From Streptomyces sp. HPF1205 (lineage in GTDB: Bacteria > Actinomycetota > Actinomycetes > Streptomycetales > Streptomycetaceae), in assembly GCF_020400825.1 (NCBI RefSeq), contig NZ_JAINVH010000014.1, positions 124,001 through 188,000 of the forward strand: DNA of 64,000 nucleotides. The letters are read 5' to 3'. Within the stretch, counting starts at the first letter, position 1, and every line of letters begins with the position of its first letter. A program made the position numbers and the translations under genes. The notes beneath the pieces are model-generated. The model saw only the letters and a program-made list of their open reading frames with translations, searched no databases and was not told where the DNA came from. Positions 10,606-33,553 of this stretch are shown here, in pieces.

Positions 10606-10977
10606 TTACTTCTCCTTCTTGGCGCCGTAGCGGCTGCGGGCCTGCTTGCGGTTCTTGACGCCCTGCGTGTCGAGGGATCCACGGATGATCTTGTAACGAA
10701 CACCCGGCAGGTCCTTCACACGGCCGCCGCGCACGAGCACGATGGAGTGCTCCTGCAGGTTGTGCCCCTCGCCCGGGATGTAAGCGGTGACCTCGATACC
10801 GCTGGTCAGACGCACACGCGCGACCTTACGGAGGGCCGAGTTCGGCTTCTTCGGGGTGGTCGTGTACACGCGTGTGCAAACGCCGCGGCGCTGCGGGGAA
10901 CCCTTCAGCGCGGGCGTCTTGTTCTTCTCGACCTTGTCCTGCCGGCCCTTGCGGACCAGCTGCTGGATCGTAGGCAC
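10606..10977 (-). CDS. rpsL: 30S ribosomal protein S12
   Basis: S12 controls decoding accuracy and is the classic streptomycin target protein. The 123-aa product has Lys at positions 43 (TTTPKKPNS) and 88 (GGRVKDLPG), the streptomycin-sensitive residues, so no rpsL resistance allele is present. It starts with GTG at 10977. As the first gene of the str operon it has a convincing promoter at 11173-11201 and a leader of about 190 nt. Confidence 0.98.
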
Positions 10978-11327: not shown

Positions 11328-11786
11328 CTAGCCGTGCGCGGTCCACGCGACGAGCCCCGCGAGCAGGACGGTCACGGCCAGCATGAGGCCCGTCACAACG
11401 TATCCCAGTACCAGCCCGGCCACCGCCAGGCCGTCTCCCTGCTCGCCGGTCCGGCGGATACGGCGGCGGGCGATGTGGCCGAGGACGATGGCGGGCACGG
11501 CGGGCAGGCCGAACATGGTGCCCGCGATGCCGCAGACCAGGGAGCCCACGGCGTAGCCGTTGGTACGCGGCGGGGCCGGGGGGTACGGCCAGAAGGCCGG
11601 CGGGGCCTGGACCGGCGGCAGGCCGTGCGGGATGTCCCCGGTCAGGACGTCCAGGTCGCCGTAGGTCCGCGCCTGGTACGCGCGGCCGATCCGGTCCTCG
11701 TACTCGCTCTGCGTCAACCGCCCCTCGGCGAACGCCTCCTTGAGGAGGCCCACCGCGTGTTCCCGATCCGCGTCACCGGCCAGCAT
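11328..11786 (-). CDS. DUF1707 plus DUF4190 small membrane protein
   Basis: Residues about 1-45 (GDADREHAVGLLKEAFAEGRLTQSEYEDR and following) form a DUF1707 domain, a short cytosolic domain common in actinobacteria. A Pro-rich linker and a DUF4190-like region with two hydrophobic segments follow (around YAVGSLVCGIAGTMFGLPAV and VLGYVVTGLMLAVTVLLAGL). The role is unknown. The start is uncertain: the ATG at 11786 matches the domain edge but its GGAG is very close, while a GTG at 11828 would add 14 residues. It lies between rpsL and the tail cluster. Confidence 0.75.
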   Translation of the reverse strand: MLAGDADREHAVGLLKEAFAEGRLTQSEYEDRIGRAYQARTYGDLDVLTGDIPHGLPPVQAPPAFWPYPPAPPRTNGYAVGSLVCGIAGTMFGLPAVPAIVLGHIARRRIRRTGEQGDGLAVAGLVLGYVVTGLMLAVTVLLAGLVAWTAHG

Positions 11787-12005: not shown

Positions 12006-12458
12006 TCAGTCCGATCCGGCGCCCTCGCCGCGCGGCGCCTCCGCCTCCCCGGGCAGGAACTGGCCGACGACCTTGACGAACATCCTGCGCTGGTCTGCCG
12101 GCACGCCGAGCGCCTCCGCCAACTCCTCCAGGGACGGCGGGCGGTCGGCGCTCGCCGCCCGGCCCGCGGACACGGCGGCGCCGGCAGTCGGCAGCGGCAG
12201 CTCCTCGGCGGTCAGCCGGCCCGAGCGGATGAGCATCTCGCGCACGGGCACGTCCAGCACGCGCGCCAGCCGGCGGGTGGTCTCCAGATCGGGCATGCTC
12301 TGCCGCTGCAGCAGCCGGGTCACGGCGGCACGGTGCACCCCCGCGTCGTCGGCGATCCGGGACTTGCCGCCGCCGCGCGGGCTGTCGATGTCGTAGCCCC
12401 GCCGGCGCATCAGCTCTTCGATCCAGGCCGCGAAGGCATCGAGTTCACTAGCGGTCAT
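12006..12458 (-). CDS. XRE-like helix-turn-helix regulator of the tail cluster
   Basis: The 150-aa product contains an HTH at about residues 30-75 (SRIADDAGVHRAAVTRLLQR, then DLETTRRLARVLDVPV), typical of the XRE/lambda-repressor superfamily, and a C-terminal Ala/Pro-rich tail. The open frame runs upstream to 12929, but the ATG at 12458 matches the domain start and has a purine-rich sequence before it. It is transcribed away from the tail genes. Operator-like site A lies in its upstream region and B before the divergent wbl-like gene, so it may repress both directions. Function is inferred from position. Confidence 0.8.
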   Translation of the reverse strand: MTASELDAFAAWIEELMRRRGYDIDSPRGGGKSRIADDAGVHRAAVTRLLQRQSMPDLETTRRLARVLDVPVREMLIRSGRLTAEELPLPTAGAAVSAGRAASADRPPSLEELAEALGVPADQRRMFVKVVGQFLPGEAEAPRGEGAGSD

Positions 12459-12680: not shown

Positions 12681-13052
12681 ATGCCCGTCGTCACCGCGCC
12701 CACCGCGCCCACCGCACCCACCGCCGTTCCCGCCGCGTCCGCGGCACCCACCGGGTCGGCGCCGTCCGCGCCGCCCGCGCCGTCCGCCGCGCCGCCGCCG
12801 GTGCCCCTGTCCGTCCTGCTGTCCGCGTCCCGGCCCGCGTGCGCGGGACTCGACCCGCGTGCCGTGTTCGCCCGGCGCGTCAAGGACGCCGCGCCCGCCC
12901 TGCGCGCATGCGCCCGCTGCCGGCTGCACGAGGCGTGCGAGCGGGCGGTCGCGCCCGCCGAGTCCTGGTTCGACGGCGTGTGCGCCGGCCGCCTGTGGCG
13001 CAACGGCCGCCCGGTGGCCGCCGCCACTCCCGACCCGCGGGAGCGCCCGTGA
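12681..13052 (+). CDS. WhiB-like (Wbl) iron-sulfur protein at the head of the tail cluster
   Basis: The 123-aa product starts at the ATG at 12681 and has an Ala/Pro-rich N-terminus. A Wbl-like core follows: one Cys in RPACAGLD, then CARCRLHEAC (C-x2-C-x5-C), completing the four cysteines that bind a [4Fe-4S] cluster, and WFDGVCAGR where Wbl proteins have the G-V/I-W-G-G turn. Wbl proteins act with sigma factors in developmental and stress transcription in actinobacteria, and some phages carry them. Here it may activate the tail genes. Its stop overlaps the next gene (GTGA). Confidence 0.75.
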   Translation: MPVVTAPTAPTAPTAVPAASAAPTGSAPSAPPAPSAAPPPVPLSVLLSASRPACAGLDPRAVFARRVKDAAPALRACARCRLHEACERAVAPAESWFDGVCAGRLWRNGRPVAAATPDPRERP

Positions 13053-14410: not shown

Positions 14411-14510
14411 TCTCAATCACACTGGATGCAACGGCGGAGCTGTGCCCGGAACCGGGGACGGCCCGCCGTCCGCCGTTTCCCGCCCCTTCGCCGCCGTCCG
14501 AGGTGACCGC

Positions 14511-14924
14511 ATGACCACACCACCCCCGAGCACCTTCCCCGACGTCGAGGCGATGGTCGTCGACGTCCTGAAGGCCGACCCCGGCCTGGCCGGCGCGACC
14601 GTGGCGGTCCAGCCGCCGGCCGGTTTCGACGGCACCCAGCCCGTCGTCCTGGTCAACCGCCGCGGCGGCGCCTGGATCAGCGACCGGCACGTCGACCAGC
14701 CGCTGATCGAGCTGGAGTGCTACGGCCCGGACAAGACCACCGCGCTCACCCTGGCCAACGCCGGCCGGCACGCGCTGCTGGCCGCCGACGGCCACACGTA
14801 CGGCACCTCGCGGGTCACCGAGGTGCTGGAGCAGGACGGGCCGCACTGGCTGCCCGACTACGTGTACAGCGGCGCCAACCGCTACGTGACCCTCATCAAG
14901 GTCTTCATGACCGCCACCGGCTGA
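14511..14924 (+). CDS. Tail completion/terminator-like protein
   Basis: The 137-aa product follows the pattern of tail terminator proteins in actinophages: FPDVEAMVVDVLKADPGLAG at the start, a central strand-rich part (PVVLVNRRGG and PLIELECYG), and a C-terminal RYVTLIKVFMTATG strand. In siphophages this protein caps the tail tube at the head-proximal end. It lies directly before the tube gene, which is the expected place. The ATG at 14511 has GAGG upstream. Assignment rests on size, order and strand pattern, not on a sequence signature. Confidence 0.65.
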   Translation: MTTPPPSTFPDVEAMVVDVLKADPGLAGATVAVQPPAGFDGTQPVVLVNRRGGAWISDRHVDQPLIELECYGPDKTTALTLANAGRHALLAADGHTYGTSRVTEVLEQDGPHWLPDYVYSGANRYVTLIKVFMTATG

Positions 14925-15087
14925 CGCGCCCCGCGCGCGCAAGCCCACAGGACCGGGCCCCGCCGACGGCGGGGCCCTCGCCGTGTCCGCACCCGCCTCC
15001 CGCGCTCGCGGCCCCGGCACCGCACCACCACCGCCCCACCACCGCACCACCCCAAATCCCGCGTTCCCCTTCTTCCGAGGAGACACC

Positions 15088-15669
15088 ATGGCAGGCAACA
15101 ACACCTCCGAGATCCGCGTCGCCGGCTCGGGCCGCATCCTGGTCGCCGCCGCCGGCGCGGCCGTTCCGGCGGACTTCAGCACCGACTGGGACCCCGCCGT
15201 CTGGAAGGACCTGGGCTACACCTCCACCGACGGCGTGACCTTCAGCAAGAAGGACAAGCTGGACCCGGTGGACACCTGGCAGGCCGTCAGCCCGGTCCGC
15301 TTCATCTACTCCGACCGCGAGCTGACCCTGAAGTTCTCGCTGATGCAGTTCAACGAGGACACCTTCCCGTTCTTCATGGGCGGCGGGACGGTGGCCCAGG
15401 TGGACGCCACCAAGTACCCCGGCGTCTACGGCTACTCGCTCGCCGACGGCCCGCAGAAGGACGAGCGGGCGCTGGGCCTGGAGTTCACCGACGGCGGTGA
15501 CGTGACCTACCGGTTCGTCATCCCGCGCGGCCAGGTCACCGCGTCGGACGACATCAAGCTGGCCCGCAAGTCCGCGGCCCTGCTCGGCGTCACCTTCACC
15601 GCGCTGTCGTCCGGCACCACCGTGCCGCTGGCGAGCTTCGTGATGAAGGACCCGGCGTACGGCGCCTGA
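15088..15669 (+). CDS. Major tail tube protein
   Basis: The 193-aa product begins MAGNNTSEIRVAGSGRILVA and continues with alternating strands (VRFIYSDRELTLKFSLMQF, LGLEFTDGGDVTYRFVIPRG) typical of siphophage tube proteins, whose hexamers stack to form the tail. The ATG at 15088 has GAGGAGA upstream, a strong ribosome binding site as expected for the most abundant structural protein. It lies before the chaperone pair, the standard order. Confidence 0.8.
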   Translation: MAGNNTSEIRVAGSGRILVAAAGAAVPADFSTDWDPAVWKDLGYTSTDGVTFSKKDKLDPVDTWQAVSPVRFIYSDRELTLKFSLMQFNEDTFPFFMGGGTVAQVDATKYPGVYGYSLADGPQKDERALGLEFTDGGDVTYRFVIPRGQVTASDDIKLARKSAALLGVTFTALSSGTTVPLASFVMKDPAYGA

Positions 15670-16146: not shown

Positions 16147-16574
16147 GCCTCGACGCGTTCGCCGAAGAACACGCCGAGGCCCTCGAAGCCGACCTCCTGC
16201 GCTTCTACGGTCTTGACCTGCTCGACTGGTACCGCGGCGAGTTGTCCTCGCGCCGGCTGTCGGTGCTGGTCAAGCACCTGCCGCGGGAGGGCGCGGTGGC
16301 CCGCGAACTGCACGGCGAGGCCGCCGAGTGGTCGGTCGGGGACCATCTGCTGGCCGCGGCGGTCGACCACCTGGCCGCGGCGAACTGGATGTTCGCCTGC
16401 GTCAACACCGCCGAGGACGCCGAGCAGCCGGCCCCGCCCGAGCCGGTCCCCCGGCCCGAGCAGGGCGGCGTCCCGGCCGACGTGACGCCCGGCCCGCGGC
16501 AGGGCCCGGCGCCGCAACCCGAACCGGAACCCGAGCAGCCCACGGCCACCGAACTCGCGGGGTTCTTCTCCTAG
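15856..16574 (+). CDS. Tail assembly chaperone G-T, made by -1 programmed frameshift
   Basis: After slippage at 16134-16140 translation continues in the -1 frame to 16574. The join reads ...GLGLGE-RLSLDAFAEEHAEALE..., about 239 aa in all. The T part (DLLRFYGLDLLDWYRGELSS, and DHLAAAVDHLAAANWMFACV-like helices) has no start codon of its own near the join and ends in a Pro/Glu-rich tail. This is the conserved lambda-type G/GT arrangement, in which GT recruits tube subunits to the tape measure. A sequencing error is less likely because the slip run sits exactly at the overlap. Confidence 0.75.
16134..16140 (+). other. Slippery heptamer for -1 frameshift
   Basis: GGGGGAA read as G GGG GAA in the G frame, two codons before the TGA of G. 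In the -1 frame the Gly tRNA re-pairs perfectly on GGG, and Glu slips from GAA to GGA. The overlap between the frames and the stop eight bases later fit a programmed site. Confidence 0.7.
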
Positions 16575-16637: not shown

Positions 16638-17780
16638 CTACGCCGGCGGGTCCGGGGGCGGCAGTGTGCCGCCGTCCGGTCCGCGGGCCGGCAGCCGCTG
16701 CGGCGGCACCAGACGCGGGATGGTCGGGGAACGGGACCTGCGGCTCTTGGCCTGGAGGGCCGGCCGCTGCCCGGACCCCGGCTGCCCCGGGCGGCCCGGC
16801 CGGGCGCCGTCGGGGTCCTTGCCGGCGTCCTGCCCCTCGCCCCCTTCTTCGGCGTCGTGGGCACCGGCGCCCTCGCCGCCGCGTACCGCGGTTCCCTCCT
16901 CCGGGTCGCACGCCAGGTCGCCGTCGTCGGCCGTCCCGTGGTCCGGAAGCGGTTCCGGCTCCGCGGGGCGGCCGTACGGCATGGCCATCGGGAAGGGGAT
17001 GACGTCGCCCGGGCCGCTGAGGGCGCGCGGCGGGCGCCAGCGGCCCAGCAGACCGTCCCGCCGGGCGGCGGCCGCGCGCGCGGCGAAGTCGGCGGCGGCG
17101 TCCTGCCATCCGGCGGCGTAGGCCATCAGCTCCCGCCGCTCGGCCTCGGTCCGGGCCATCGCGACGACGCCGCCGGCCCCGTGGCGGGCGATCAGCCGCC
17201 CCAACCGGGCCATCAGGCGCGGCAGTTCGTCGGCGTCGCGGTAGCCGGGGTCGTCGTCCCACGGCTCGCCGTCCCGGGAGGTGTCGTCCGACGGGCCGTC
17301 ACCGCTCCGGCTCCCGTACGGCCGCCGGGAGTCGTCGGACCCGCTGTCGTACGAGAGCCCGGTGCGGTACGGGGCCTCGTCGGGCGGGTCGCCGTACGGC
17401 AAGGGGCCGCCGTGGCGGGTGTCGTCGGAGAGGGCGCCGTACAGCCGCCCCTCGCCGTAGGGGAGGTCGTCGTCCGGCAGCAGGTCGTCGTACCGGGCCT
17501 CGTCCGGCAGCAGGTCGTCGGAACGGCCGCCGTGGGCGCGGATCGGGCCGGGCCGCCCACCGGCCGGACGGGGCGTGGCCGCCGGGCCGTGGTCCCAGGG
17601 GAGGTCGTCGTCCCACGGGAGGTCGTCCTCCAGGCCGTCGTCCTCCGGGCCGTCCCGTTCGAGCTCCGGCACGTCCACGTCGTCGAAGTCGTCCGGCTCC
17701 CCCGCCGCCCCCGCCCGGTCCGCGCCTCCGAGTGCCGCCCTGCGGCTGCGCCCGGGCCCAAGTCCGCTGTCCCCGCCCAT
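16638..17780 (-). CDS. Cargo protein of unknown function, antisense to the tail genes
   Basis: A 380-aa product on the opposite strand. Residues about 1-190 are very acidic and low-complexity (repeats such as DDLLPDEARYDDLLPDDDLP). Residues about 190-280 are a folded helical core with ELPRLMARLGRLIARHGAGG and AYAAGWQDAAADFAA. The C-terminus is Pro/Gly-rich. GAGGG lies before the ATG at 17780. The AYAAGWQDA motif recurs in the small protein at 17993-18166, which supports it as a real gene. No family function is recognised. Confidence 0.6.
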   Translation of the reverse strand: MGGDSGLGPGRSRRAALGGADRAGAAGEPDDFDDVDVPELERDGPEDDGLEDDLPWDDDLPWDHGPAATPRPAGGRPGPIRAHGGRSDDLLPDEARYDDLLPDDDLPYGEGRLYGALSDDTRHGGPLPYGDPPDEAPYRTGLSYDSGSDDSRRPYGSRSGDGPSDDTSRDGEPWDDDPGYRDADELPRLMARLGRLIARHGAGGVVAMARTEAERRELMAYAAGWQDAAADFAARAAAARRDGLLGRWRPPRALSGPGDVIPFPMAMPYGRPAEPEPLPDHGTADDGDLACDPEEGTAVRGGEGAGAHDAEEGGEGQDAGKDPDGARPGRPGQPGSGQRPALQAKSRRSRSPTIPRLVPPQRLPARGPDGGTLPPPDPPA

Positions 17781-17818
17781 GCGACATCACCCTCGGCTCC
17801 CGGAACCCCCCTGCGAGT

Positions 17819-17848
17819 GTGAACGCTTCTCTGGTTCGGAACGTTCAC
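17819..17848. promoter_or_regulatory. Inverted repeat between the two AYAAGWQDA genes
   Basis: GTGAACG (17819-17825) and CGTTCAC (17842-17848) separated by 16 nt, in the 212-nt divergent gap between the antisense gene and the 57-aa gene. It could be an operator for the divergent pair. No clear promoter hexamers were identified. Confidence 0.35.
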
Positions 17849-17992
17849 CTCCACCTGGCTGCGGCGTCTGAACTGGTACTTCACACGCTGCACACAAGAC
17901 GTCCCAGTTTACCTCCCCCGCAGTAAGCCCTTCCGTGTCCTGCCGGAAACCCGTTCGATCCGGATCCGCACCTTCGAAAGCGGTGAGACCGC

Positions 17993-18166
17993 GTGTCCGC
18001 ACACCCCGCGCCGAAGCACCTCGCACCGAAGCCCCCCGCCACGCCGCCCGACGACCCCCCGGTCGTCACCCTCACCCGCGCCGAACTCCACGCCCGCGAG
18101 GCCCGCGCCTACGCCGCCGGCTGGCAGGACGCGATGACGGCCGTCCGCGCGGCACCGCCACGGTAA
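17993..18166 (+). CDS. 57-aa protein sharing the AYAAGWQDA motif
   Basis: GTG start at 17993, TAA at 18164. After a Pro-rich first half comes VVTLTRAELHAREARAYAAG followed by WQDAMTAVRAAPPR. The nine-residue stretch AYAAGWQDA is identical to one in the antisense protein at 16638-17780. This makes a real short gene, possibly a truncated paralogue or partner, more likely than chance. The ribosome binding site is weak. Confidence 0.5.
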   Translation: MSAHPAPKHLAPKPPATPPDDPPVVTLTRAELHAREARAYAAGWQDAMTAVRAAPPR

Positions 18167-18224
18167 CGGACCCGCCGCCTCTTCAACACCCCTGCTGACG
18201 TGGTGGGTTGCCGCCGATCGCGGC

Positions 18225-18896
18225 TCAGGCCGACGTGCCGGGCGACTGCCGCGCCCAGCGGCGGAAGTCACGTACGACGGGCCGGGCCCGCCAGGTCGAC
18301 CGGAACCGGACATCGGGCAGGTCCGCTCCGCGGTGCCGGCCGTCGCGTTTCCAGAAGCGGTCGGTGCGCGCGTGCTGCACGACGGTGAAGAACTGCCAGA
18401 AGACGCCGGGAGTCGCGTGCCGCCGCAGGAAGAAGAGGACGTCGTTGAACTGCTCCGCGGGTCCGTCGTCCAGCCAGAACAGCACCAGCGTGCACCCGGG
18501 CCGTTCGGCGGTCGCCTCGAACACCCCGCGGACGCCGGACAGCGGCGGGACACTCCACCGTTCGAGTCCGGCACCGAAGTGCTGACGCAGCCCGGCGCCC
18601 CTGCCCGGCTCCTTCGACAGGTCCACGGCGGAGTCCGGCAGGAACGTCCAGTCCCGCAGCCACTCGTCCCGGCCGGCGGCCTCCAGCCGGGTACGCACGG
18701 CCTTCTCGTCCCCGCCCGCGGTCCGGCCGTAGAACACCGCGTCGACGCCCGCGCCGTGCTCCAGCCGTTCGGCGATGCGCAGCGCCTGCTTCGCGAACCT
18801 CCCCACCGCGGTGGTCCGCCACTGGGTCGTGAACGGCCACTCCCGGCAGGCCGGCACGGCCACCACGACCCGGCACTCGCCCCCGAAGTCCGCCAT
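18225..18896 (-). CDS. Hypothetical protein, faintly like the TerF-type vWA fold
   Basis: The 223-aa product starts MADFGGECRVVVAVPACREW and has alternating hydrophobic strands and helices, including TLVLFWLDDGPAEQF and TPGVFWQFFTVVQ. The last resembles the xxFWQFxxxx strand of TerF-like von Willebrand A domains, but no MIDAS DxSxS motif is visible, so the assignment is weak. It is divergent from the next gene, with only 36 nt between the start codons. It is part of the cargo block between chaperones and tape measure. Confidence 0.55.
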   Translation of the reverse strand: MADFGGECRVVVAVPACREWPFTTQWRTTAVGRFAKQALRIAERLEHGAGVDAVFYGRTAGGDEKAVRTRLEAAGRDEWLRDWTFLPDSAVDLSKEPGRGAGLRQHFGAGLERWSVPPLSGVRGVFEATAERPGCTLVLFWLDDGPAEQFNDVLFFLRRHATPGVFWQFFTVVQHARTDRFWKRDGRHRGADLPDVRFRSTWRARPVVRDFRRWARQSPGTSA

Positions 18897-18932: not shown

Positions 18933-19649
18933 ATGTCAGATCGTTCCCAAAAGCAGATCAATTCCGACCTGGACTCACTGGACACGTCGGTCCGCGACCT
19001 GAACACCAAGCTGAAATCCGTGCCGAGTACCGGCGACCTGGCAAAGACGAGCGCGGACGTCGCGGAACTGCAGACATCCGTCAAGAAACTCAAGAACCCG
19101 GCCTTCTACAAGCCCAATCGCGCGGCGACGGGGGCGATCACGACCCGGACCGTCACAGCCATCGCGGCGAGCGCGACAGCGACACTCGCGGTCAGCATCA
19201 CGCTGTTCAAGATAGACGAGAAAGGCATCACCATTCTCGGCGTCACGCGGGAGATGCCCTGGAAAAAGGCCTTCGACAAGCTGCAGAAGCTGGTCGACTC
19301 GCCTGGCCAGAAGGAGAAGCGCCGCCAAGAGGCACAGCTCAAGGACAAGGTCGAAGGACTCGGCATCAAGGCCGGCAAGGTCGACGGGAAGATCCGCGAC
19401 GCCAAGTCCGAGGTGAGGCGGCAGCTCAACCAGAAATACGGCCCGCTCATCGGAAGGGTCGAGCGCATCGAGACCAAGTTGCGGGAAGCGGCTGCCGTCG
19501 TCGACGCCGCCCGGAAGGACAGAACCGGTCTGACCCACAACCACAAAGGCGCCAGGGCGAAGGAACCGGCGATCAGCCCGGTCGCGAAGGACGTCGTGAA
19601 GCTGCAGAACGCCGTGGACAAATTGGTCGAGTCACTCGCCGGGATCTGA
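18933..19649 (+). CDS. Coiled-coil protein with one membrane-like segment
   Basis: The 238-aa product has an N-terminal helix with heptad spacing (SDLDSLDTSVRDLNTKLKS). A hydrophobic segment near residues 70-92 (VTAIAASATATLAVSITLF) follows, then long charged helices (GQKEKRRQEAQLKDKVEGLG). Codon use is less GC-biased than its neighbours (AAA, ATA, ATT and AAT occur), a sign of more recent acquisition. It lies 20 nt before the tape measure and may be an effector, an immunity protein or a tail accessory. Function unknown. Confidence 0.65.
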   Translation: MSDRSQKQINSDLDSLDTSVRDLNTKLKSVPSTGDLAKTSADVAELQTSVKKLKNPAFYKPNRAATGAITTRTVTAIAASATATLAVSITLFKIDEKGITILGVTREMPWKKAFDKLQKLVDSPGQKEKRRQEAQLKDKVEGLGIKAGKVDGKIRDAKSEVRRQLNQKYGPLIGRVERIETKLREAAAVVDAARKDRTGLTHNHKGARAKEPAISPVAKDVVKLQNAVDKLVESLAGI

Positions 19650-19669: not shown

Positions 19670-20863
19670 ATGTCCCTCGTACAGGCATTGCAGAAATCCA
19701 CCACCGCGCTCAAGAACTTCGTCACCCAGGCCGACGCCGCCGGGACCGCCGCCAAGGGGATCGGGGACAAGGCGCGGGCCGGGTCCGGCGAGATGAAGCA
19801 GTTGCAGACCGCCGCCCAGGGCTCGTCCTCGGCGGCGAAATCGCTGAAGACCACCACCGACGACATGGAGAAGTCGGTGGGGCGGGCCGGGAAGACCGGG
19901 GAGAAGAGCGGCGGGCTGCTCTCGAAGTTCAAGTCCGGTGCCGACAAGGCGCGTCAGGGCATGGACGGCATGAACAAGTCCATGAAGGGCAATCTGCTGG
20001 GCGTCCTGCTGGGCCTGCTCGCGCCGCTGATCGGCATGGTCGTGCAGATGGCTCTGCAGTCCAAGACGATGCAGAACATCATGAAGAAGGCGTTCGGCGT
20101 GATCCAGTCGGCGATCAGCGGCGCCATGAAGATCATCGGCCCGGTGATGAAGAAGGCCGGCGCGCTGATCAAGCAGGTCTGGAACGGCATCAAGTCCGCG
20201 ATCACCACGGTGGTCAAGGCCGTCGGCACGGTCATCAAGACCTACTTCACGATCTACAAGACGATCATCGAGACCGTGCTCAAGGTCGTCAAGGCGGTCG
20301 TGAAGGGCGCCTGGAACGGCATCAAGGCCGTGATCGTGCCGGTGGTCGACTGGGTGAAGTCGGCCATCCCGCACGCCTTCCAGGCCGTCAAGGACAAGCT
20401 GTCGAGCATCTGGGGCGGGCTGAAGGGCATCGCGAGCCGGGCGTTCGACGGGATCAAGAGCGCGGTGGTCGGGCCCATCGACGGCGTCATCGGGCTGATC
20501 AACCGCGCGATCGGCGCCCTGAACTCGATCCACGTGTCGATCCCCGGCTGGGTGCCGGTGGTGGGCGGCAAGACGTTCGGCGTGCACCTGCCGACCATCC
20601 CGATGCTCGCCGCCGGCGGCGTGGTGATGCCGCGGGCCGGCGGTGTGCCGGCGATCCTGGCCGAGGCCGGCGAGGCCGAGGCGGTGCTGCCGCTGAGCAA
20701 GCTGAACCGGCTGCTGGGCGCCACGGCGTCCGCGGGCCGGACGGCGGTTGGGGCGGCGGCCGCGGGTTCCGCGCTGCACATCGAGAACTACTACGCGGCC
20801 CCCGCCGGTGACGCGCAGAGCACCGCCGACGCCCTGATGTACCTCGCCAAGGCCCGCGGATGA
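19670..20863 (+). CDS. Tape-measure protein 1
   Basis: The 397-aa product has helical, Ala/Gly/Lys-rich repeats, hydrophobic segments (around residues 108-130, LLGVLLGLLAPLIGMVVQMA) and a run of amphipathic repeats with regular Trp (VWNGIKSAIT, AWNGIKAVIV, IWGGLKGIAS). The C-terminal GKTFGVHLPTIPMLAAGGVV and EAVLPLSKL form the tape-measure tail motif. Using about 0.15 nm per residue, the tail would be about 60 nm, short for a siphophage. Its TGA overlaps the next ATG (ATGA). Confidence 0.85.
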   Translation: MSLVQALQKSTTALKNFVTQADAAGTAAKGIGDKARAGSGEMKQLQTAAQGSSSAAKSLKTTTDDMEKSVGRAGKTGEKSGGLLSKFKSGADKARQGMDGMNKSMKGNLLGVLLGLLAPLIGMVVQMALQSKTMQNIMKKAFGVIQSAISGAMKIIGPVMKKAGALIKQVWNGIKSAITTVVKAVGTVIKTYFTIYKTIIETVLKVVKAVVKGAWNGIKAVIVPVVDWVKSAIPHAFQAVKDKLSSIWGGLKGIASRAFDGIKSAVVGPIDGVIGLINRAIGALNSIHVSIPGWVPVVGGKTFGVHLPTIPMLAAGGVVMPRAGGVPAILAEAGEAEAVLPLSKLNRLLGATASAGRTAVGAAAAGSALHIENYYAAPAGDAQSTADALMYLAKARG

Positions 20864-22140
20864 GCGCCGGGGCGGACGCCGAGGGCTACGACGACCCGCT
20901 CGCCGGGACCGCCAGGCCGCTCGCGGCCCTGGGAGAGCAGGCCCGCGCGATGGCCTCGGCGCTCAAGAAGGCGCTCTCCGGCGCCGACCGCGCCGCCGGC
21001 GGCGCCGACGCGATCCGCGGCGCCGCGCAGGCCGACACGGCCGCGGTGCGCGGCATGAAGGACTCGGCGGCCGCCGCCGAGACGTCCATGGGCAAGGCCG
21101 CGATGACGGCGGGGACGGCGGCCGGCGGGCTGCGCGGCGCGCTCGCCCGGATCCGCGGGGTCAGCGGCTCGCTCGGGCAGCTCGCGCTCGGGGCGGGCGG
21201 CGCGCTGGCGATGCTCGTCGCGATGACGCCGGCCCTCGCGCCCGTGCAGAACCTGCTCGACAAGCTCGGACTGGCGATGATGATCGGCTCGCTCGCCATC
21301 ACCGCCGTCAACACCCTGATCAAGGCCAATCCGATCGGCTTCGTCACCGGAGTGCTCGCGCCGCTCGCCGCCTACCTGATCGACCTGGCGCTCAACTCCG
21401 AGACGGGGCAGCGGATCATGCGCAAGGTCGCCGACACCGTGACGCGGGGCATCCCGGCCGTGCTGACGGTCCTGGGCCCGCTGCTGAAGGTCGTCGCGAC
21501 CGTCGTCGCCACGTACTTCGCGGTGTACCTGACGGTGGTCGTCGACGTGCTCAAGGTCGTCGCCGCCGTGGTGAACGGCGGCTTCGCCGTCATGCGCGCC
21601 CTGCTGACCGGGAACGTCGGCAGCCTGCGCGGGATCGTCTCCCGGGCCTGGCAGGGACTGAGGAACGCGCTCTCGCCGGTGCTCAACTGGCTGACCAGGA
21701 CCCTGCCGGGCGCGTTCACCCGTGTGAAGGACGCGGTGTCGCGTGCGCTGGGCGCCGCCGGCGGCTTCCTGACGACGGGCGCCCAGACGGTCGCCGGCGT
21801 GGCCAAGGCCCCGCTGGAAGGGCTGATCGCGTTCGCCAACTGGGTCATCAGCGGCCTGAACAAGATCGGCTTCTCGTTCTTCGGCAAGCACTTCGGCATC
21901 CACCTGTCGCCGATCCCGATGCTGGCCGAGGGCGGGATCGTCCTTCCCGCCGCCGCCCGCGGCGCCGCCCGCGTCCTGCCGCTCACGGCCCTCGACCGGC
22001 AGCTCGCCCTCGCGGCCTCCCTGCACCGCGCGGGCGGCACCGGCTGCCCGCACCGGGTCCAGGAGTACCGGGAGAGCGCCGCGCTCGGCGCCCACGGCAC
22101 CGCCGAGGAGCTGCTGTTCCTCGCCGCCGTGCACGCCTGA
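20860..22140 (+). CDS. Tape-measure-like protein 2 (tandem paralogue)
   Basis: The 426-aa product begins with an Ala-rich coiled-coil domain, then two hydrophobic segments (near 110-125 and 140-180), an amphipathic region and a C-terminal GKHFGIHLSPIPMLAEGGIV that matches GKTFGVHLPTIPMLAAGGVV of the previous protein. The sequence then reads RVLPLTALDRQL. It is therefore a diverged duplicate. Start and stop are coupled to the first copy by ATGA. Both may be built into the particle, or one may set length and the other act at the tip. This is not resolvable from sequence. Confidence 0.8.
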   Translation: MSAGADAEGYDDPLAGTARPLAALGEQARAMASALKKALSGADRAAGGADAIRGAAQADTAAVRGMKDSAAAAETSMGKAAMTAGTAAGGLRGALARIRGVSGSLGQLALGAGGALAMLVAMTPALAPVQNLLDKLGLAMMIGSLAITAVNTLIKANPIGFVTGVLAPLAAYLIDLALNSETGQRIMRKVADTVTRGIPAVLTVLGPLLKVVATVVATYFAVYLTVVVDVLKVVAAVVNGGFAVMRALLTGNVGSLRGIVSRAWQGLRNALSPVLNWLTRTLPGAFTRVKDAVSRALGAAGGFLTTGAQTVAGVAKAPLEGLIAFANWVISGLNKIGFSFFGKHFGIHLSPIPMLAEGGIVLPAAARGAARVLPLTALDRQLALAASLHRAGGTGCPHRVQEYRESAALGAHGTAEELLFLAAVHA

Positions 22141-22236: not shown

Positions 22237-23157
22237 ATGGCCGAATCCACGACCCCGTACACCGACGACGTCCCGCCAGGCTCGCTGATCACCCAGGACG
22301 GGCAGGTCCAGTGGGCCGGGCTGCTGCTCGGGCCCGGAACCCCGTACGGCATCGACAGCAGCGGTATGACCGGCTGGGAGGACCTGCCGGAGATCCAGTC
22401 CGCCGACGCCGACCGGCCCACCGACCACGGCGCGTGGCCGGGCGCCAGGTACGCCAAGTCCCGGCTGGTCGGCGGCCAGGTGTGGCTGCTGCCCGACGCC
22501 GACGGCGGCGGACCGGCCGCGCTCGACACCGTCCGCACGCTGCGCCAGGCGCTGGCGCTGCGCGACGAGGAGCGCTGGCTCGCGGTGCGCGTGCACGGCG
22601 AGACGCTCGCGGTGCGCGCCCGGGTCAGCCAGCGCGTGGTGCCCACCGACCAGACGTACGCCACGCAGGGCGTGGCCAAGGCTTCCGTGCAGTGGATCGC
22701 CGCGGACCCGCGCCGCTACCAGCCGACCGAGCGCACCGCGGGCACCGAGCCGCCGGAGCCGGAGGCCGGCCTGACCTGGCCGCTGGTGTGGCCGCTGGAC
22801 TGGGGCCAGGCGCTGAGCACCGGCGACCTCGCGCTGGACAACGAGGGCTCCGCGCCCACCCACCCGGTGATCACGTTCCAGGGGCCGTGCACGACCCCGT
22901 CGGTGACCGAGCAGACCACCGGCCGCCGGCTGCGGTACGGCATCACGCTCGCGGCGCAGGACCAGCTCGTGGTGGACACCACCGAGGGCACGGTCGTGCT
23001 CAACGGCACCGCGTCCCGCCGCTACACCGCGCTGCCGGACAGCGGCCCCGAGGAGCTGTTCACCTTCGACCCCGGGCGGTCGGAACTGTCCTTCCGGGCC
23101 GACAGCTTCCAGGCCGGCGCCCGCATGACCGTCACCTGGCGCAGCGCCGAATGGTGA
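22237..23157 (+). CDS. Distal tail (Dit-like) protein
   Basis: The 306-aa product has an N-terminal half with GSLITQDGQVQWAGLLLGPG and YAKSRLVGGQVWLLPDADG, resembling the N-terminal barrel of Dit proteins. The C-terminal half has GDLALDNEGSAPTHPVITFQ, the hallmark jelly-roll galectin-like strand of siphophage Dit C-domains. Dit forms the hexameric hub joining the tube to the tip. Position directly after the tape measure supports this. Confidence 0.8.
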   Translation: MAESTTPYTDDVPPGSLITQDGQVQWAGLLLGPGTPYGIDSSGMTGWEDLPEIQSADADRPTDHGAWPGARYAKSRLVGGQVWLLPDADGGGPAALDTVRTLRQALALRDEERWLAVRVHGETLAVRARVSQRVVPTDQTYATQGVAKASVQWIAADPRRYQPTERTAGTEPPEPEAGLTWPLVWPLDWGQALSTGDLALDNEGSAPTHPVITFQGPCTTPSVTEQTTGRRLRYGITLAAQDQLVVDTTEGTVVLNGTASRRYTALPDSGPEELFTFDPGRSELSFRADSFQAGARMTVTWRSAEW

Positions 23158-23245: not shown

Positions 23246-24433
23246 ATGACCGCGACCGTACGATCGGCATGGCTGCTCGGCACCGGCCAGACCCGCGAGG
23301 ACACCCGGCTGACGGAGCTGGGCGCGACGCTGCCCGCGGACCCGCTGAAGGTGACCAGCGGCATCCTGCCCGGTTCCGCCGACGGCTCGGCGAAGGTCGC
23401 GGCCTTCTGGCTGACCGACCAGACGGCCATGACCGCGACCGTGCAGCCGGGCCGCGCGGTGATCCAGGGCATGGCCACCCAGGGCGCCTACGCGGTGACG
23501 CTCGCCGAGGCCACCACCTTGACCTTCGCCGACGGGGACCCGCAGCCCCGCGTCGACCTGGTCTGCCTGCGGGTCTACGACACGCCCTACGACGGCTCCG
23601 GGCAGACGGCGGCGGCGCTGGAGATCGTACGGGGCACGGCCGCCGCCACGCCCGTCCCGCCGCCGGTGCCGGCCCAGGCGCTGCCGCTCTACACCGTCGC
23701 CGTGCCCGCCGGCGCCTCCGCCGGCAACACCGGCATCCTGTGGGCGTCGGCCGTCACGGACCTGCGCGTCACCACCGTCGCGACCGGCGGCGTACTGCCG
23801 GTGTACGGAAACGCGGCGGTGCCCGGCTCCTACATCGGCCAGTTGCGCGACAACAACAACGTGGTGGAGCGCTGGAGCAAGAGCGCCTGGGTCGGCTACC
23901 CGCAGGCGCTGGGCGGCATCATCCCCTCCGGGAGCGGTGTCGCGGCCACCTACGTCGGCCAGTACCGCGACAGCGGCGGGAAGCTGCAGCGGTGGAACGG
24001 CACCGCGTGGGACACCGTGTCCCCGGCGACGCTGGGCTTCGTGTACAGCTACGACGCGGGCAGCACCACTTCCACCACGTACAACAGCACGCTCGCGGAC
24101 CGCACCGCACCGCTGACCGTCAACTTCACCGCGCCCCCCACCGGGGCGGTGCTGGTCACCCTGGGGGCGACCGTCCACACCACGGGCGACGCCACGACCA
24201 CCGGTTACATGGCCGCCGCGATCACGCAGGGCGCCACGGTGGTCAGCGCGGCCGGCGACAACTACGCCGCGCAGGGCACCTACAGCTACCCCAACTCCGT
24301 GATGGTCACCTACCGCGTCGGCGGCCTGACCCCGGGCGCCGCGAGCACCGCGACGGCCTGGTTCCGCAGCACCAACTCCAAGTTCGACACCTGGTTCGAC
24401 AACCTCCAGATCCGCATCGAACCCGCCGCGTAG
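23246..24433 (+). CDS. Tail-tip/receptor-binding protein A
   Basis: The 395-aa product starts MTATVRSAWLLGTGQTREDT and contains GILPGSADGSAKVAAFWLTD, PQPRVDLVCLRVYDTPYDGS and two copies of YxGQxRDxxxxxxRW (SYIGQLRDNNNVVERW and TYVGQYRDSGGKLQRW). A Ser/Thr-rich beta domain fills the last 130 residues. The N-terminal 190 residues are shared with the next gene, while the C-terminal domains differ, as in receptor-binding proteins. Ligand unknown. Confidence 0.7.
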   Translation: MTATVRSAWLLGTGQTREDTRLTELGATLPADPLKVTSGILPGSADGSAKVAAFWLTDQTAMTATVQPGRAVIQGMATQGAYAVTLAEATTLTFADGDPQPRVDLVCLRVYDTPYDGSGQTAAALEIVRGTAAATPVPPPVPAQALPLYTVAVPAGASAGNTGILWASAVTDLRVTTVATGGVLPVYGNAAVPGSYIGQLRDNNNVVERWSKSAWVGYPQALGGIIPSGSGVAATYVGQYRDSGGKLQRWNGTAWDTVSPATLGFVYSYDAGSTTSTTYNSTLADRTAPLTVNFTAPPTGAVLVTLGATVHTTGDATTTGYMAAAITQGATVVSAAGDNYAAQGTYSYPNSVMVTYRVGGLTPGAASTATAWFRSTNSKFDTWFDNLQIRIEPAA

Positions 24434-24523
24434 GCGGCTCCCCCGGGCCCGGCACCCCCGCGGTGCCGGGCCCGCGGCATGCCCGGCCCGGCCACCCCGA
24501 CCCTTCCGCGCAAGGAGACCCGC

Positions 24524-25615
24524 ATGTCCGTCAGTTCCGCCTGGCTCGCCGACAGCGGCCAGACCCGCCAGGACACCCGCCTGTCGCCCACCGGCACCTT
24601 CACCCCCGCCACCTCGCCGCTCGCCAGCCGCTCGGGGGTCATCCCCGGCTCCACCGACGGCGCCTCCCGGTTCTCCGGATTCAACGCGACGGGCTCCGGG
24701 ATGACCCTCACCGTCTCCCCGGGCCGGGCCGTCGTCCAGACCAGCGACGCCCAGGGCGCCTACCCGGTCGCGCTGACCGGCCCGGTGACGCTCACCGTGT
24801 CCGACGGCAACCCGCAGCCGCGCATCGACCTGGTCGTGCTGCGCGTGTACGACAACCTCTTCGACGCCTCCGGCCGCAACGAGGCCACCGTCGAGATCGT
24901 CCCCGGCAGCCCCGCCGCCACGCCGGTGCCGCCGCCCGCCCCCGCCGGGTCGCTGCCGCTCTACCACATCGCGGTCGCGGCCGGGGTGAGCGCCGGAACC
25001 GGCGGCATCGTCTGGAACAGCGCCCTGACCGGGGTGCGCACCGCCACCGTCGCCGTCGGCGGCATCCTGCCCGTCTCCACCGACACGGCGCCGGGCGCCT
25101 ACCCCGGCCAGTACCGCGACGCCGGCGGCGCCCTCCAGCGCTGGGACGGCGGCGCCTGGCAGCCGTACCCGCCGGTCCCGGCCTGGCAGGACTGGGTACC
25201 GGTGTGGACCACCGACAACGGGCCGGTGAGCTTCGGCAACGCGACGCTGAACTGCCGCTACGTGCAGTACGGGCCGATCGTGCACATGGCCTTCGGCGTC
25301 GTCTTCGGCAGCACCACCAACTTCGGCACCGGCACCACGACCTCGCAGAACTGGCACTTCACCCTGCCCGTGCCGATCGCCTCGACGACGCAGTGCATCG
25401 GCTTCGCCGAACTCAACGACGTCACCAACGTCAACTACCGCGCGCTGTCCCGGATGCGCGTCACGACCACCACGTCCTTCCAGCTGGAGATCGACACCGG
25501 CCGGGTGGACGGCAACGCCGCCACGCCCGGCGGCCTGGTCGACTCCTCCAGCCCGTGGACCTGGGCGGCGGGCGACGCCATCTGGGGCACCGCGACGTAC
25601 GAGGCCGCCGTATGA
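24524..25615 (+). CDS. Tail-tip/receptor-binding protein B (paralogue of A)
   Basis: The 363-aa product shares the A-protein N-terminus (SSAWLADSGQTRQDTRL, VIPGSTDGASRFSGF, PQPRIDLVVLRVYDNLFD) and one YPGQYRDAGGALQRWDGG linker, then has a different beta-rich C-terminal domain (AWQDWVPVWTTDNGPVSFGN and following). The shared base and different ends suggest duplication followed by diversification of binding specificity. The start is the ATG at 24524 with AAGGAG upstream. Its stop overlaps the next gene. Confidence 0.7.
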   Translation: MSVSSAWLADSGQTRQDTRLSPTGTFTPATSPLASRSGVIPGSTDGASRFSGFNATGSGMTLTVSPGRAVVQTSDAQGAYPVALTGPVTLTVSDGNPQPRIDLVVLRVYDNLFDASGRNEATVEIVPGSPAATPVPPPAPAGSLPLYHIAVAAGVSAGTGGIVWNSALTGVRTATVAVGGILPVSTDTAPGAYPGQYRDAGGALQRWDGGAWQPYPPVPAWQDWVPVWTTDNGPVSFGNATLNCRYVQYGPIVHMAFGVVFGSTTNFGTGTTTSQNWHFTLPVPIASTTQCIGFAELNDVTNVNYRALSRMRVTTTTSFQLEIDTGRVDGNAATPGGLVDSSSPWTWAAGDAIWGTATYEAAV

Positions 25616-26775
25616 GCGGCGGCCCGGTCACCACGCCGTACCGGGCGATCTTCTGCGACCTGCGGACGGACGAGACCATCGACGTGCTGCCGCTGTCCCA
25701 GGTGTCCTTCGACGACTACATCGGCAAGCCCGGCTCGCTCGACGGCACCGTGCCGCTGCCCAACGCCGAACTGGCCACGCGGGCGCGGCGGGTGGAGGAG
25801 GGCCGCACCTCGGTGTACCTCGAACGCGGCGGCGACCTGTGGTGGGGCGGCATCGTGTGGACCCGCACCCTGACCAGCGACACCCAGGGCGTGATGACCC
25901 TCGGCATCCAGGCCGCGACCTTCGACTCGTACGCCTCGCGCCGCATCATCCGCCGCTCGCTCGCCTACAACGGCGTCGACCAGCTGCAGATCATGCGCAA
26001 CCTGTGGGACTACATGCAGCAGCCGCCGCAGGACGACCCGAACTGGGGCGGCGACATCGGCGTCACCTACGGCGACGAGGGCTCCACGATCTTCACGTCC
26101 GCGTCGTGGAGCGACGGCGACGAGACGGTCGTGGCCGACGCCATCAGCACCCTCGCCGACACCGACACCGGCTTCGAGCACCACATCGCGATCTTCCGCG
26201 ACCCCGTCACGGGCCTTCGGGTCCGGCAGCTCCAGCTCGGCCGGATCGACGAGACCGACCAGTCGCCGACCGGGCAGGTCGCCAAGATCCGCACCGGGGA
26301 GACGGACCTGGTCCTGGACCGGCCCGGCTCGATCCTGTCCTACACGATGCCCTACGACGCCACCCGCGGCGGCAGCACCGCGCGGGCCCGCGGCGCGGAC
26401 GTCAGCGACGACCAGTCCACCCACGCCGGGCCGATCATCTGCCCCGAGGTGGTCGCCGACGACCTGCTCGCCGGCGGCTTCCCCCGCGTCGACCTGTCCT
26501 CGGACCACAGCACCGTCACCGACACGACGACGCTGACCTCGCTGGCCAGGGCCCAACTGGCCACGTCCCGCGGCTCGGTGATGATCCCCGACGTCACGAT
26601 CCGGCTCGACGACCTGGTGCCGCCCGCGCTGCTCGGCCGCACCGCGCGCATCCGGATCACCGACGCCTGGTTCACCGAGGGCCTGGACGCGCGCTACCGG
26701 ATCATCGGCGTCAAGGTCACCCCGCCCGAACGCGGCACACCGGAGACCGCGGAACTGTTCCTGGAGGACGTCTGA
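25612..26775 (+). CDS. Tal-like tail hub protein
   Basis: The 387-aa product begins with YRAIFCDLRTDETIDVLPLS and GKPGSLDGTVPLPN and contains TSVYLERGGDLWWGGIVWTR, a phrase typical of actinophage minor tail proteins of the gp27-like hub fold (Tal, ORF16-like). The middle has DSYASRRIIRRSLAYN and FEHHIAIFRDPVTGLRV. The C-terminus has RIRITDAWFTEGLDARYRII. Hub trimers close the tail end and may carry lytic domains. No lysin domain is seen here. Coupled to both neighbours (ATGA, TGATG). Confidence 0.75.
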   Translation: MSGGPVTTPYRAIFCDLRTDETIDVLPLSQVSFDDYIGKPGSLDGTVPLPNAELATRARRVEEGRTSVYLERGGDLWWGGIVWTRTLTSDTQGVMTLGIQAATFDSYASRRIIRRSLAYNGVDQLQIMRNLWDYMQQPPQDDPNWGGDIGVTYGDEGSTIFTSASWSDGDETVVADAISTLADTDTGFEHHIAIFRDPVTGLRVRQLQLGRIDETDQSPTGQVAKIRTGETDLVLDRPGSILSYTMPYDATRGGSTARARGADVSDDQSTHAGPIICPEVVADDLLAGGFPRVDLSSDHSTVTDTTTLTSLARAQLATSRGSVMIPDVTIRLDDLVPPALLGRTARIRITDAWFTEGLDARYRIIGVKVTPPERGTPETAELFLEDV

Positions 26776-27974: not shown

Positions 27975-28862
27975 ATGGCCACACCCCTGTCCGCCGACAC
28001 CCTGCTGGCCGCGCTGCGGCACGAGGGCGTCACCGTCGTCGAACACCCCGGCTGGCGCACCCACAACCGCGCCGGCCACGGCCCCTGGGGCCCGGTGCAC
28101 GGCGTCGTCATCCACCACACCGTCACCACCGGAACCGACTCCAGCGTCGCCCTGTGCTGGGACGGCCGCTCCGACCTGCCGGGCCCGCTGTGCCACGGCG
28201 TGATCGCCAAGGACGGCAGCGTCCACATGATCGGCAACGGCCGCGCCAACCACGCCGGGCTCGGTGACGGCCGCGTGCTCGACGCGGTCGCCGCCGAACG
28301 CCCGCTGCCGCCGCCGCGCGCCAACGACACCGACGGGAACACCGCCTTCTACGGCTTCGAATGCGTCAACATGGGCGACGGCCGGGACCCCTGGCCGGCC
28401 GCCCAACTGGACGCCATCGAGCGGGTGTCGGCGGCGATATGCCGCGCCCACGGCTGGCACGCGCCCTCGGTCATCGGCCACAAGGAGTGGACCGACCTCA
28501 AGGACGACCCGCGCGGCTTCTCGATGGACGGCATGCGCGCCCGGATCGCCGCCCGACTCGGCCGGGCCCCGGCCGCAGGCTCCGGGAACCCGCCCCGGCC
28601 GCCCGCCCCCGCGTACCAGCCGTACCCCGGGGCCGCCTGGTTCCACGCGCAGCCGACCTCGCCGGTCGTGGCCGCGATGGGCCGGCGGCTGGTCGCCGAG
28701 GGCTGCTCCGCGTACCGCGTCGGACCCGGCCCGCGCTGGACGCAGGCCGACCGGGACAGCTACGCGCTGTGGCAGCGCAAGCTCGGCTACCGCGGCGACG
28801 CGGCCGACGGCTGGCCCGGCCCCGCCTCCTGGGCCGCGCTGCGGGTCCCGCACGTCGCCTGA
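27975..28862 (+). CDS. N-acetylmuramoyl-L-alanine amidase endolysin with C-terminal wall-binding domain
   Basis: The 295-aa product has an Amidase_2/PGRP domain at residues about 15-195: GVVIHHTV (zinc His), NHAG (zinc His region) and GHKEW for the catalytic end. After a Pro-rich linker, residues about 225-295 form a peptidoglycan-binding-like domain (DRDSYALWQRKLGYRGDAAD, WPGPASWAALR). No signal peptide is visible, so release needs a holin, two candidates for which follow. It probably lyses the producer cell to free the tail particles. Confidence 0.9.
   Translation: MATPLSADTLLAALRHEGVTVVEHPGWRTHNRAGHGPWGPVHGVVIHHTVTTGTDSSVALCWDGRSDLPGPLCHGVIAKDGSVHMIGNGRANHAGLGDGRVLDAVAAERPLPPPRANDTDGNTAFYGFECVNMGDGRDPWPAAQLDAIERVSAAICRAHGWHAPSVIGHKEWTDLKDDPRGFSMDGMRARIAARLGRAPAAGSGNPPRPPAPAYQPYPGAAWFHAQPTSPVVAAMGRRLVAEGCSAYRVGPGPRWTQADRDSYALWQRKLGYRGDAADGWPGPASWAALRVPHVA

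Positions 28863-29653: not shown

Positions 29654-33553
<3,900 letters not shown>

What the first reader, a model, noticed from the sequence alone, without database searches (positions are those of the whole stretch)
19670..22140. Tandem duplicated tape-measure proteins
Two adjacent coupled genes of 397 and 426 aa share the C-terminal motif GKxFGxHLxxIPMLAxGGxV. One siphophage tail normally has one tape measure. Two short copies could give tails of defined short length, a heteromeric core, or two particle types.
Basis: partly seen in the sequence, partly recalled or inferred. Interest (0 to 1): 0.55.

Follow-up and report, generated by a model that had tools for sequence, protein, structure and literature searches.

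The report
Paired tape-measure proteins, length-matched
A headless phage-type tail in the Streptomyces family carries two related "ruler" genes side by side instead of one, and in the relatives examined both rulers have matching lengths, which suggests that the two proteins lie together inside one tail.

Summary
TmpA (19670-20863, 397 aa) and TmpB (20860-22140, 426 aa) overlap by ATGA, are paralogues (E 6e-34), and match tape-measure (TMP) families. They sit in a siphophage-type tail cluster without recognised head genes, between rpsL and rpoC of a Streptomycetaceae genome. Of 69 loci picked by TmpA matches, 47 have the adjacent pair, 20 one TMP, one has two TMPs with separate tip modules, and one decayed locus has them fused. 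A and B form separate supported clades. The two related Streptomyces phages opened have one TMP.

The new finding is lock-step length. The segment between two conserved anchors is 115 aa in A and 115 or 114 in B in 40 loci, and 71 in A and 71 or 70 in B in 7 loci; none is mixed. The 44-aa step equals four 11-residue tape units and occurred at least twice. Gene conversion within the segment is not evident, although the preceding flank is somewhat alike in two loci.

Best reading: A and B co-assemble side by side in one tail as a two-component ruler, B perhaps specialised for the membrane. Stoichiometry and particle content are untested. Two equal-length particle types are less likely but not excluded.

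The parts
19670..20863 (+). TmpA, tape measure protein A, 397 aa
   Evidence: phrog_3981 5.5e-31; orthologues in 47 two-TMP loci, window included
20860..22140 (+). TmpB, paralogous tape measure protein B, 426 aa
   Evidence: phrog_3981 5.4e-19; 32% identity to TmpA
20860..20863 (+). ATGA overlap of TmpA stop and TmpB start
   Evidence: sequence; same overlap in 36 of 47 loci
19994..20338 (+). TmpA lock-step segment, 115 aa between hydrophobic anchor and PVVDW anchor
21331..21675 (+). TmpB lock-step segment, 115 aa between hydrophobic anchor and PVLNW anchor
20567..20626 (+). TmpA C-terminal motif GKTFGVHLPTIPMLAAGGVV
21883..21942 (+). TmpB C-terminal motif GKHFGIHLSPIPMLAEGGIV
18933..19649 (+). 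upstream gene, 238 aa, coiled-coil-like by inspection; similar-looking genes stand at this place in most of the 13 loci printed, with one or two TMPs
   Evidence: no significant family match (weak hits only)
14511..14924 (+). tail terminator
   Evidence: phrog_123 (that query began at 14463)
15088..15669 (+). major tail (tube) protein
   Evidence: phrog_117, Pfam Phage_TTP_17 (queries began at 14983); only match of phrog_117 in the genome
15856..16146 (+). tail assembly chaperone
   Evidence: phrog_10551
22237..23157 (+). distal tail protein (Dit-like)
   Evidence: phrog_5577, Pfam SPP1_Dit
23246..24433 (+). virion structural protein 1; taken as a tip protein from its position after Dit
   Evidence: phrog_3398, filed by PHROGs under head and packaging; SV1 gp18 stands at the same place
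24524..25615 (+). virion structural protein 2, paralogue of 1
   Evidence: phrog_3398 (query began at 24479)
25612..26775 (+). minor tail protein
   Evidence: phrog_1885
27975..28862 (+). endolysin (amidase)
   Evidence: phrog_880, Pfam Amidase_2
12006..12458 (-). transcriptional repressor (called XRE type from inspection)
   Evidence: phrog_3949
10606..10977 (-). rpsL, one flank of the insertion site
   Evidence: named from the translation; used as query
29654..33553 (-). rpoC, other flank of the insertion site
   Evidence: named from the translation; used as query

Best explanation
The locus makes a headless, non-contractile tail (F-type tailocin-like) whose core is a two-component tape measure. 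TmpA and TmpB are translated coupled, are both held by the single chaperone set, and lie parallel and in register inside the same tube, so the tail tube must stop at one length set by both. Shown: the paralogy, the gene overlap, the conservation of both copies under purifying selection, and the matching length of their central helical segments, which changed in both by 44 residues (four 11-residue units) at the same aligned place on at least two occasions. Inferred: translational coupling, physical co-assembly, its stoichiometry, and a division of labour in which A keeps the full C-terminal motif, presumed to dock at the tip, while B, which is more hydrophobic and has lost part of that motif in most loci, is the part that enters the target membrane.
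For: Segment lengths A/B are 115/115 or 114 in 40 loci and 71/71 or 70 in 7, none mixed of 47. An alignment-free check gave A 194 in 40 of 40 long loci, B 186-188 in 34 of 40 (6 not measurable), A 150-151 in 7 of 7 short loci, B 143 in 5 and 134-135 in 2 of 7. Named Streptomyces loci agree in 36 of 36 measurable of 39 listed (several are the same records). On a tree of 30 of the 47 pairs plus 13 single-type rows, A (99/97) and B (100/100) are separate clades and short locus L097 lies among long ones in both. A tree of five other tail genes from the same 30 loci needs 2 length changes on starred branches. Single TMPs span 42-141 aa in the same segment. Hydrophobic periodicity peaks at 3.63-3.67 residues in A and B. 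dN/dS is below 1 for A and B in 12 of 12 close pairs shown. One Dit and one chaperone gene in 46 of 47. A has the AEAGExEA motif in 47 of 47, B has AEAGExE in 11 of 47, and those 11 are the loci without the ATGA overlap. B is more hydrophobic. Both profiles match FtbJ, deposited with 3 chains.
Against: No particle has been seen; no expression or mass-spectrometry data exist here. Two independent length changes are too few for a sign test (p 0.5). In L105 two TMPs that each have their own tip module are also equal in length (178/42/86), so equal length alone does not prove one particle. Three single TMPs (L095, L096, L106) also have 115 aa in the segment, so 115 is not special to pairs. End parts of A and B are also weakly correlated in length (r 0.43 and 0.45, against 1.00 for the segment). 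In the flank before the segment, A and B of L099 and L100 are more alike within a locus than between loci (0.43 vs 0.29, 0.40 vs 0.31), so some gene conversion there cannot be ruled out. Douge TMP is a homotrimer (PMC13033339, passages), and a trimer cannot be 1:1. B has about 45 extra N-terminal residues. The structure models are too poor to test an interface.
Confidence: 0.57

Rival explanations
1. Two particle types: each TMP is used alone to build its own tail on the shared tube and tip, and both tails are kept at the same length because both must span the same target cell wall.
For: Both proteins keep N-terminal, hydrophobic and C-terminal parts of a TMP. L105 shows one cluster with two equal-length TMPs, each followed by its own tip module.
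Against: 46 of 47 pair loci have one chaperone and one Dit gene (the other is a 4.5-kb contig), so two particle types would share these and differ mainly in the core; phrog_3398-like genes number 1-4 per locus in those 46. Strict adjacency in 47 loci and the ATGA overlap in 36 of 47 point to a fixed ratio.
Confidence: 0.18
2. A is the only tape measure; B is a passenger or pore protein that rides beside it in the tube and is length-matched only so that it fits.
For: B is more hydrophobic, has the higher dN/dS in 10 of 12 pairs, and lacks the AEAGE part of the C-terminal motif in 36 of 47 loci.
Against: B keeps the 11-residue periodicity and the segment length of A. In practice this is a variant of co-assembly.
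Confidence: 0.14
3. A and B are stacked end to end, giving one long tape of about 820 aa, like the 805-aa TMP of phage SV1.
For: 397 + 426 aa is close to the length of SV1 gp16.
Against: A and B align with each other from the N-terminal part to the C-terminus, each with its own hydrophobic anchor and C-terminal motif. Serial tapes need not change length in step.
Confidence: 0.05
4. B is a redundant duplicate drifting towards loss, and the shared length is inherited or spread by gene conversion.
For: B has the higher dN/dS in 10 of 12 pairs; one decayed locus (L068) has A fused to the rest of B; raised within-locus A-B likeness before the segment in L099 and L100.
Against: B is kept in 47 loci over wide divergence with dN/dS below 1 in the pairs tested, and length changed in both copies after the duplication. 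In the segment itself within-locus identity is hardly raised.
Confidence: 0.06

Closest known systems
Streptomyces phage SV1 tail module (NC_018848, gp13-gp23)
   Same: Similar gene order: major tail protein, chaperones, TMP, Dit-like minor tail protein, virion structural protein, minor tail protein, endolysin; Dit 44.9% identical
   Different: One TMP of 805 aa and a complete phage with a head; the cluster here has two short TMPs and no recognised head genes
F-type bacteriocin of Listeria (monocin, ftb cluster); TMP FtbJ, PDB 9j1k
   Same: F-type tailocin cluster with a holin-lysin cassette (PMC7076858, passages); FtbJ matches the profiles of A and B at 4.3e-13 and 4.7e-13, TmpA alone at 1.8e-5
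   Different: FtbJ is 622 aa; that 9j1k is the monocin, that FtbJ is its TMP and that monocin has one TMP rest on the name Ftb and recall, not on a call. The B profile also hits tropomyosins and other coiled coils, so part of such matches is helix composition
TP901-1 TMP
   Same: 11- and 18-residue repeats and hydrophobic regions; deletions shorten the tail at about 0.15 nm per residue (PMC5099701, passages)
   Different: Single, longer TMP of an infectious phage
Streptomyces contractile injection system (SLP/eCIS)
   Same: Phage-tail-derived particle of Streptomyces (PMC8910223, passages)
   Different: Contractile; no sheath family was found in this cluster, and the tube family is a siphophage-type one

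Membership tests
Tape measure proteins | Sequence match to TMP families | tested here: met
   phrog_3981 for both A and B
Tape measure proteins | Position between tail chaperone and distal tail protein | tested here: met
   the 238-aa gene and two opposite-strand ORFs also lie in between
Tape measure proteins | Long helical tape with about 11/3-residue periodicity | tested here: met
   helices in low-confidence models
Tape measure proteins | Hydrophobic segment | tested here: inconclusive
   Kyte-Doolittle 19-residue mean 1.6 or more: B has 1-5 such segments in 45 of 47 loci, A has 1-2 in 23 of 47 and none over the threshold in 24; in the window A has 1 and B 5
Tape measure proteins | Sets tail length | not testable with these tools
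   needs mutants and electron microscopy
F-type tailocins | Tail genes without capsid, portal or terminase | tested here: met
   no capsid, portal or large-terminase match in the genes scanned. Against: the two phrog_3398 proteins belong to a family filed under head and packaging and also hit phrog_9534 'head protein' (about 1e-6); weak hits to head scaffolding (0.007, the 238-aa gene) and small terminase (0.008, a MerR-like gene). Not scanned: ORFs 11328-11786, 12801-13052, 16263-16574, 17993-18166
F-type tailocins | Non-contractile: tube but no sheath | tested here: met
   tube family found, no sheath family in the genes scanned
F-type tailocins | Lysis cassette for release | tested here: inconclusive
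   endolysin found; the two small downstream genes match PHROGs of unknown function
F-type tailocins | Kills related bacteria | not testable with these tools
   no experiment available

The most novel reading that the evidence does not exclude
A heteromeric tape measure: a molecular ruler built from two different paralogous proteins running in register inside one tail tube, with the two copies constrained to change length together in whole 11-residue units and one copy specialised for membrane entry.
Probability: 0.54. Interest if true: 0.72.

Novelty: new variant of a known kind. Interest (0 to 1): 0.57.

Why it matters
Tape measures are usually treated as single-protein rulers, and the one with a described oligomer among the papers I saw is a homotrimer (Douge). 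A natural pair, kept together across the Streptomyces family and changing length together, would be a ready experimental handle on two open points: how many tape chains fill a tail and how they are arranged, and which part of the tape sets length and which part acts on the target membrane. It also draws attention to a headless non-contractile tail locus, often at rpsL-rpoC, in many Streptomyces; the Streptomyces tail particles in the papers I saw are contractile.

Tried and rejected
Split of one gene into N- and C-terminal halves: rejected, because A and B align with each other along nearly their whole length. Frameshift or assembly error: rejected, because the two-gene form recurs in 47 loci. 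Gene conversion as the source of the lock-step: in the central segment within-locus A-B identity is hardly above between-locus identity (class I 0.252 vs 0.237; class II above the mean in 4 of 7 and below in 3), and in the flank before it L097 shows no rise (0.22 vs 0.24); but L099 and L100 do show a rise there (0.43 vs 0.29, 0.40 vs 0.31), so it is disfavoured, not excluded. Natural A-B fusion as evidence for contact: L068 looks decayed, with truncated tube and minor tail genes, so I do not use it. Fold comparison: models had mean pLDDT 34 (A) and 53 (B), so no fold search was run. Phage homologues: A matches 219 of 50,697 phage records, none over 80% of its length; B matches none at 1e-5. 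Viral contigs: of 154 loci kept from two capped scans, 0 have two TMP-like frames on that strand, but many are short pieces. Plasmids: the A-B DNA has no match; B as protein matches two Paraclostridium TMPs weakly. My regular-expression anchor failed for most loci and was replaced by the one. Papers: the searches showed me no report of paired TMP genes or of this locus; listings were capped and most subscription papers are not held. Nearest wording: the SuMu paper (PMC3447690, passages) lists mass-spectrometry matches to more than one TMP homologue of other phages; in those passages it does not describe paired genes.

Rows dropped: weak or long-frame hits were not fetched (for example G068, G078, G196 and most hits above about 1e-10), so the 69 loci are a chosen set. 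Among named loci, L130 and L160 have an incomplete frame of one copy and L158 has one TMP, so they are not in the 36; L137, L152, L153 and L165-L168 were not measured. L068 was left out of the 47. Trees used 30 of the 47 pairs. The clade labels were mine: only part of those loci were placed by the tree.

Full report
What was checked. The two genes are at the stated coordinates with the stated lengths, and the stop of the first overlaps the start of the second as ATGA. A search of the window's own genome with TmpA finds itself and TmpB at 118.8 bits, E 6e-34, 32% identity over A residues 99-394. Both proteins match PHROG tape-measure families, best phrog_3981.

Setting. The genes lie among tail genes on the + strand: tail terminator, tube protein, chaperone, a 238-aa gene that looks coiled-coil, TmpA, TmpB, Dit-like protein, two phrog_3398 virion structural proteins, a minor tail protein and an amidase endolysin. 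The flanking genes are rpsL/rpsG and rpoC, on the opposite strand. No capsid, portal, large terminase or sheath family was found among the genes scanned. Against that, phrog_3398 is filed under head and packaging and its members here also hit a 'head protein' family at about 1e-6; I take them as tip proteins because they follow Dit, as gp18 does in SV1. Four small ORFs of the interval were not scanned. The host belongs to Streptomycetaceae: family-mates named only by code are the same contigs as named Streptomyces records (for example G271:C15, 1,724,015 bases, is S. hyaluromycini NZ_BCFL01000016). The window itself lies in another genus of that family. This is therefore an F-type tailocin-like locus by anatomy; killing activity is untested.

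Copy number. TmpA was searched in whole genomes: 8 of 35 in the genus, 60 of 297 in the family and 66 of 293 in the order had a match at E 0.001 or better, the sets overlapping. TmpB as query matched 3 of 296 genomes across the class, the window's own included, all in the same family. I fetched 68 stretches chosen from those hits and called genes with a simple GC-codon method of my own. With the window that makes 69 loci: 47 with A and B adjacent (39 of L055-L094, all but L068, plus L097-L100, L102-L104 and the window), 1 decayed locus with A and B fused (L068), 1 with two TMPs separated by a different tip module (L105), and 20 with one TMP (one of them, L108, runs into a contig end). Of the 47, 31 show rpsL, rpsG or rpoC within the fetched stretch; the other 16 do not reach it or lie elsewhere. 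The ATGA overlap is present in 36 of 47; in the other 11 TmpB starts 6 to 100 bases after TmpA. In 46 of 47 there is one chaperone and one Dit gene; the exception is a 4.5-kb contig.

Origin. On a tree of 73 TMP rows (30 of the 47 pairs and 13 single-type rows) without the length-variable segment, all A sequences form one clade (99/97), all B sequences another (100/100), and the single-type rows fall outside with weak support (73/91). One duplication before the spread of the locus is the simplest reading. The two Streptomyces phages with a related Dit that I opened have one TMP each: SV1 gp16 of 805 aa and Attoomi gene 15.

Lock-step length. In an alignment of A and B the stretch from the hydrophobic anchor (LLGVLLGLLAP in A) to the PVVDW/PVLNW anchor is 115 aa in A in 40 loci, where B has 115 or 114, and 71 aa in A in 7 loci, where B has 71 or 70. 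No locus is mixed. A check without alignment, from the hydrophobic anchor to the IPxLAxGG motif, gives the same step: A 194 against 150-151, B 186-188 against 143 (134-135 in two loci that lost a further 8-9 residues); B could not be measured in 6 of 47. In named Streptomyces loci the rule holds in 36 of 36 measurable of 39 listed, with B counted from one column later; several are the same records. Other parts follow much less: lengths of the N-terminal and C-terminal parts of A and B correlate at 0.43 and 0.45, against 1.00 for the segment. Single TMPs of related clusters range from 42 to 141 aa in this stretch, three of them being 115 too; alignment of the more distant ones is less sure.

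Why this is not inheritance alone. The short locus L097 sits among long loci in the A tree, in the B tree, and in a tree of chaperone, tube, Dit, minor tail protein and endolysin; the other six short loci sit elsewhere. So A and B both changed by 44 aa on at least two separate occasions. Two events are too few for a test (sign test p 0.5); the strength lies in the match of size and place. Within a locus A and B are hardly more alike than between loci in that segment (0.252 against 0.237 in 40 class I loci; 4 of 7 class II loci above the between-locus mean, 3 below). In the 60 columns before it, L097 shows no rise, but L099 and L100 do (0.43 vs 0.29, 0.40 vs 0.31), so copying between A and B is disfavoured rather than excluded. 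Forty-four is four 11-residue units, the tape unit described for other TMPs (PMC3271669 and PMC5099701, passages read), and hydrophobicity in A and B peaks at 3.63-3.67 residues, near 11/3.

Difference between the copies. dN/dS is below 1 for both in the 12 close pairs shown (A 0.12-0.48, B 0.34-0.67), B being higher in 10 of 12. B is more hydrophobic: in 25 long loci that I assigned to the window's side (13 of them placed by the tree) B has 2-5 strongly hydrophobic segments and A 0-1; elsewhere the contrast is weaker (15 other long loci: A 0-2, B 1-3; 7 short loci: A 0-2, B 0-3), and single TMPs have 0-2. A keeps the AEAGExEA motif in 47 of 47 loci; B keeps AEAGExE in 11 of 47. Those 11 are exactly the loci without the ATGA overlap: where B has lost the motif, the two genes overlap. 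The 11 fall in two related groups, so this is few events, but it fits a B that came to depend on A. AlphaFold models are low in confidence (mean pLDDT 34 and 53) and only show that both are mostly helical.

Mechanism. Douge TMP is a homotrimer in a tube rising 41.8 A per ring (PMC13033339, passages), lambda gpH is called an oligomer (PMC10721106, passages), and FtbJ, which both A and B profiles match, is deposited with three chains. Side-by-side packing of A and B in register in one tube predicts the equal lengths seen. By the TP901-1 relation (0.15 nm per residue, about 127 residues not counted; PMC5099701, passages) TmpA would give a tail of about 40 nm, and the 44-residue step about 6.6 nm. 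This is an estimate by analogy. Stoichiometry is open; a trimer cannot hold equal numbers of A and B, so mixed trimers or six chains are possible.

Main doubt. L105 carries two TMPs, each followed by its own set of tip genes, and these too are equal in length. If they serve two particles, equal length can arise without sharing a tube. That is why two particle types stay at 0.18 and co-assembly at 0.57. In the A/B loci one Dit follows the pair, which is the reason for preferring co-assembly.

Verdict. A real, conserved, unusual feature; a new variant of a known kind. I found no report of it in the library searched, which lacks most subscription papers.

Noticed in passing
L105:9061-19407: One cluster with two TMPs (389 and 391 aa), each followed by a different tip module: a natural candidate for two tail types sharing one tube.
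   Followed up: partly
L109-L118 (fetched loci): A second tail type, with one TMP and a tip module that does not match the window's Dit; where flanks are visible (L113, L117, L118) it lies beside rpoC, and in L117 and L118 it is inverted relative to rpoC.
   Followed up: partly
L055, L079, L083, L085: In these four loci of the window's genus the open frame of TmpA extends upstream to 713-791 aa; in L079, the only one whose sequence I printed, the extra part looks coiled-coil, as if the upstream gene were fused to TmpA.
   Followed up: partly
16638-18896: A 2.3-kb stretch among the + strand tail genes carries two ORFs on the - strand (16638-17780, 18225-18896) with no PHROG match.
   Followed up: no
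23246-25615: Two tandem proteins of phrog_3398 with different C-terminal matches, a second tandem duplication in the same cluster.
   Followed up: no
L106:10682-16157: A related cluster with one TMP but two Dit-like genes and three phrog_3398-like genes; L122 also has two Dit-like genes, so duplication of tail genes recurs in these clusters.
   Followed up: no
L068:9301-11184: Decayed cluster in Streptomyces sp. SM11 with TmpA fused in frame to most of TmpB (627 aa).
   Followed up: partly
19670-22140 and the 47 pair loci: TmpB keeps the AEAGE motif in exactly the 11 of 47 loci where it does not overlap TmpA.
   Followed up: partly
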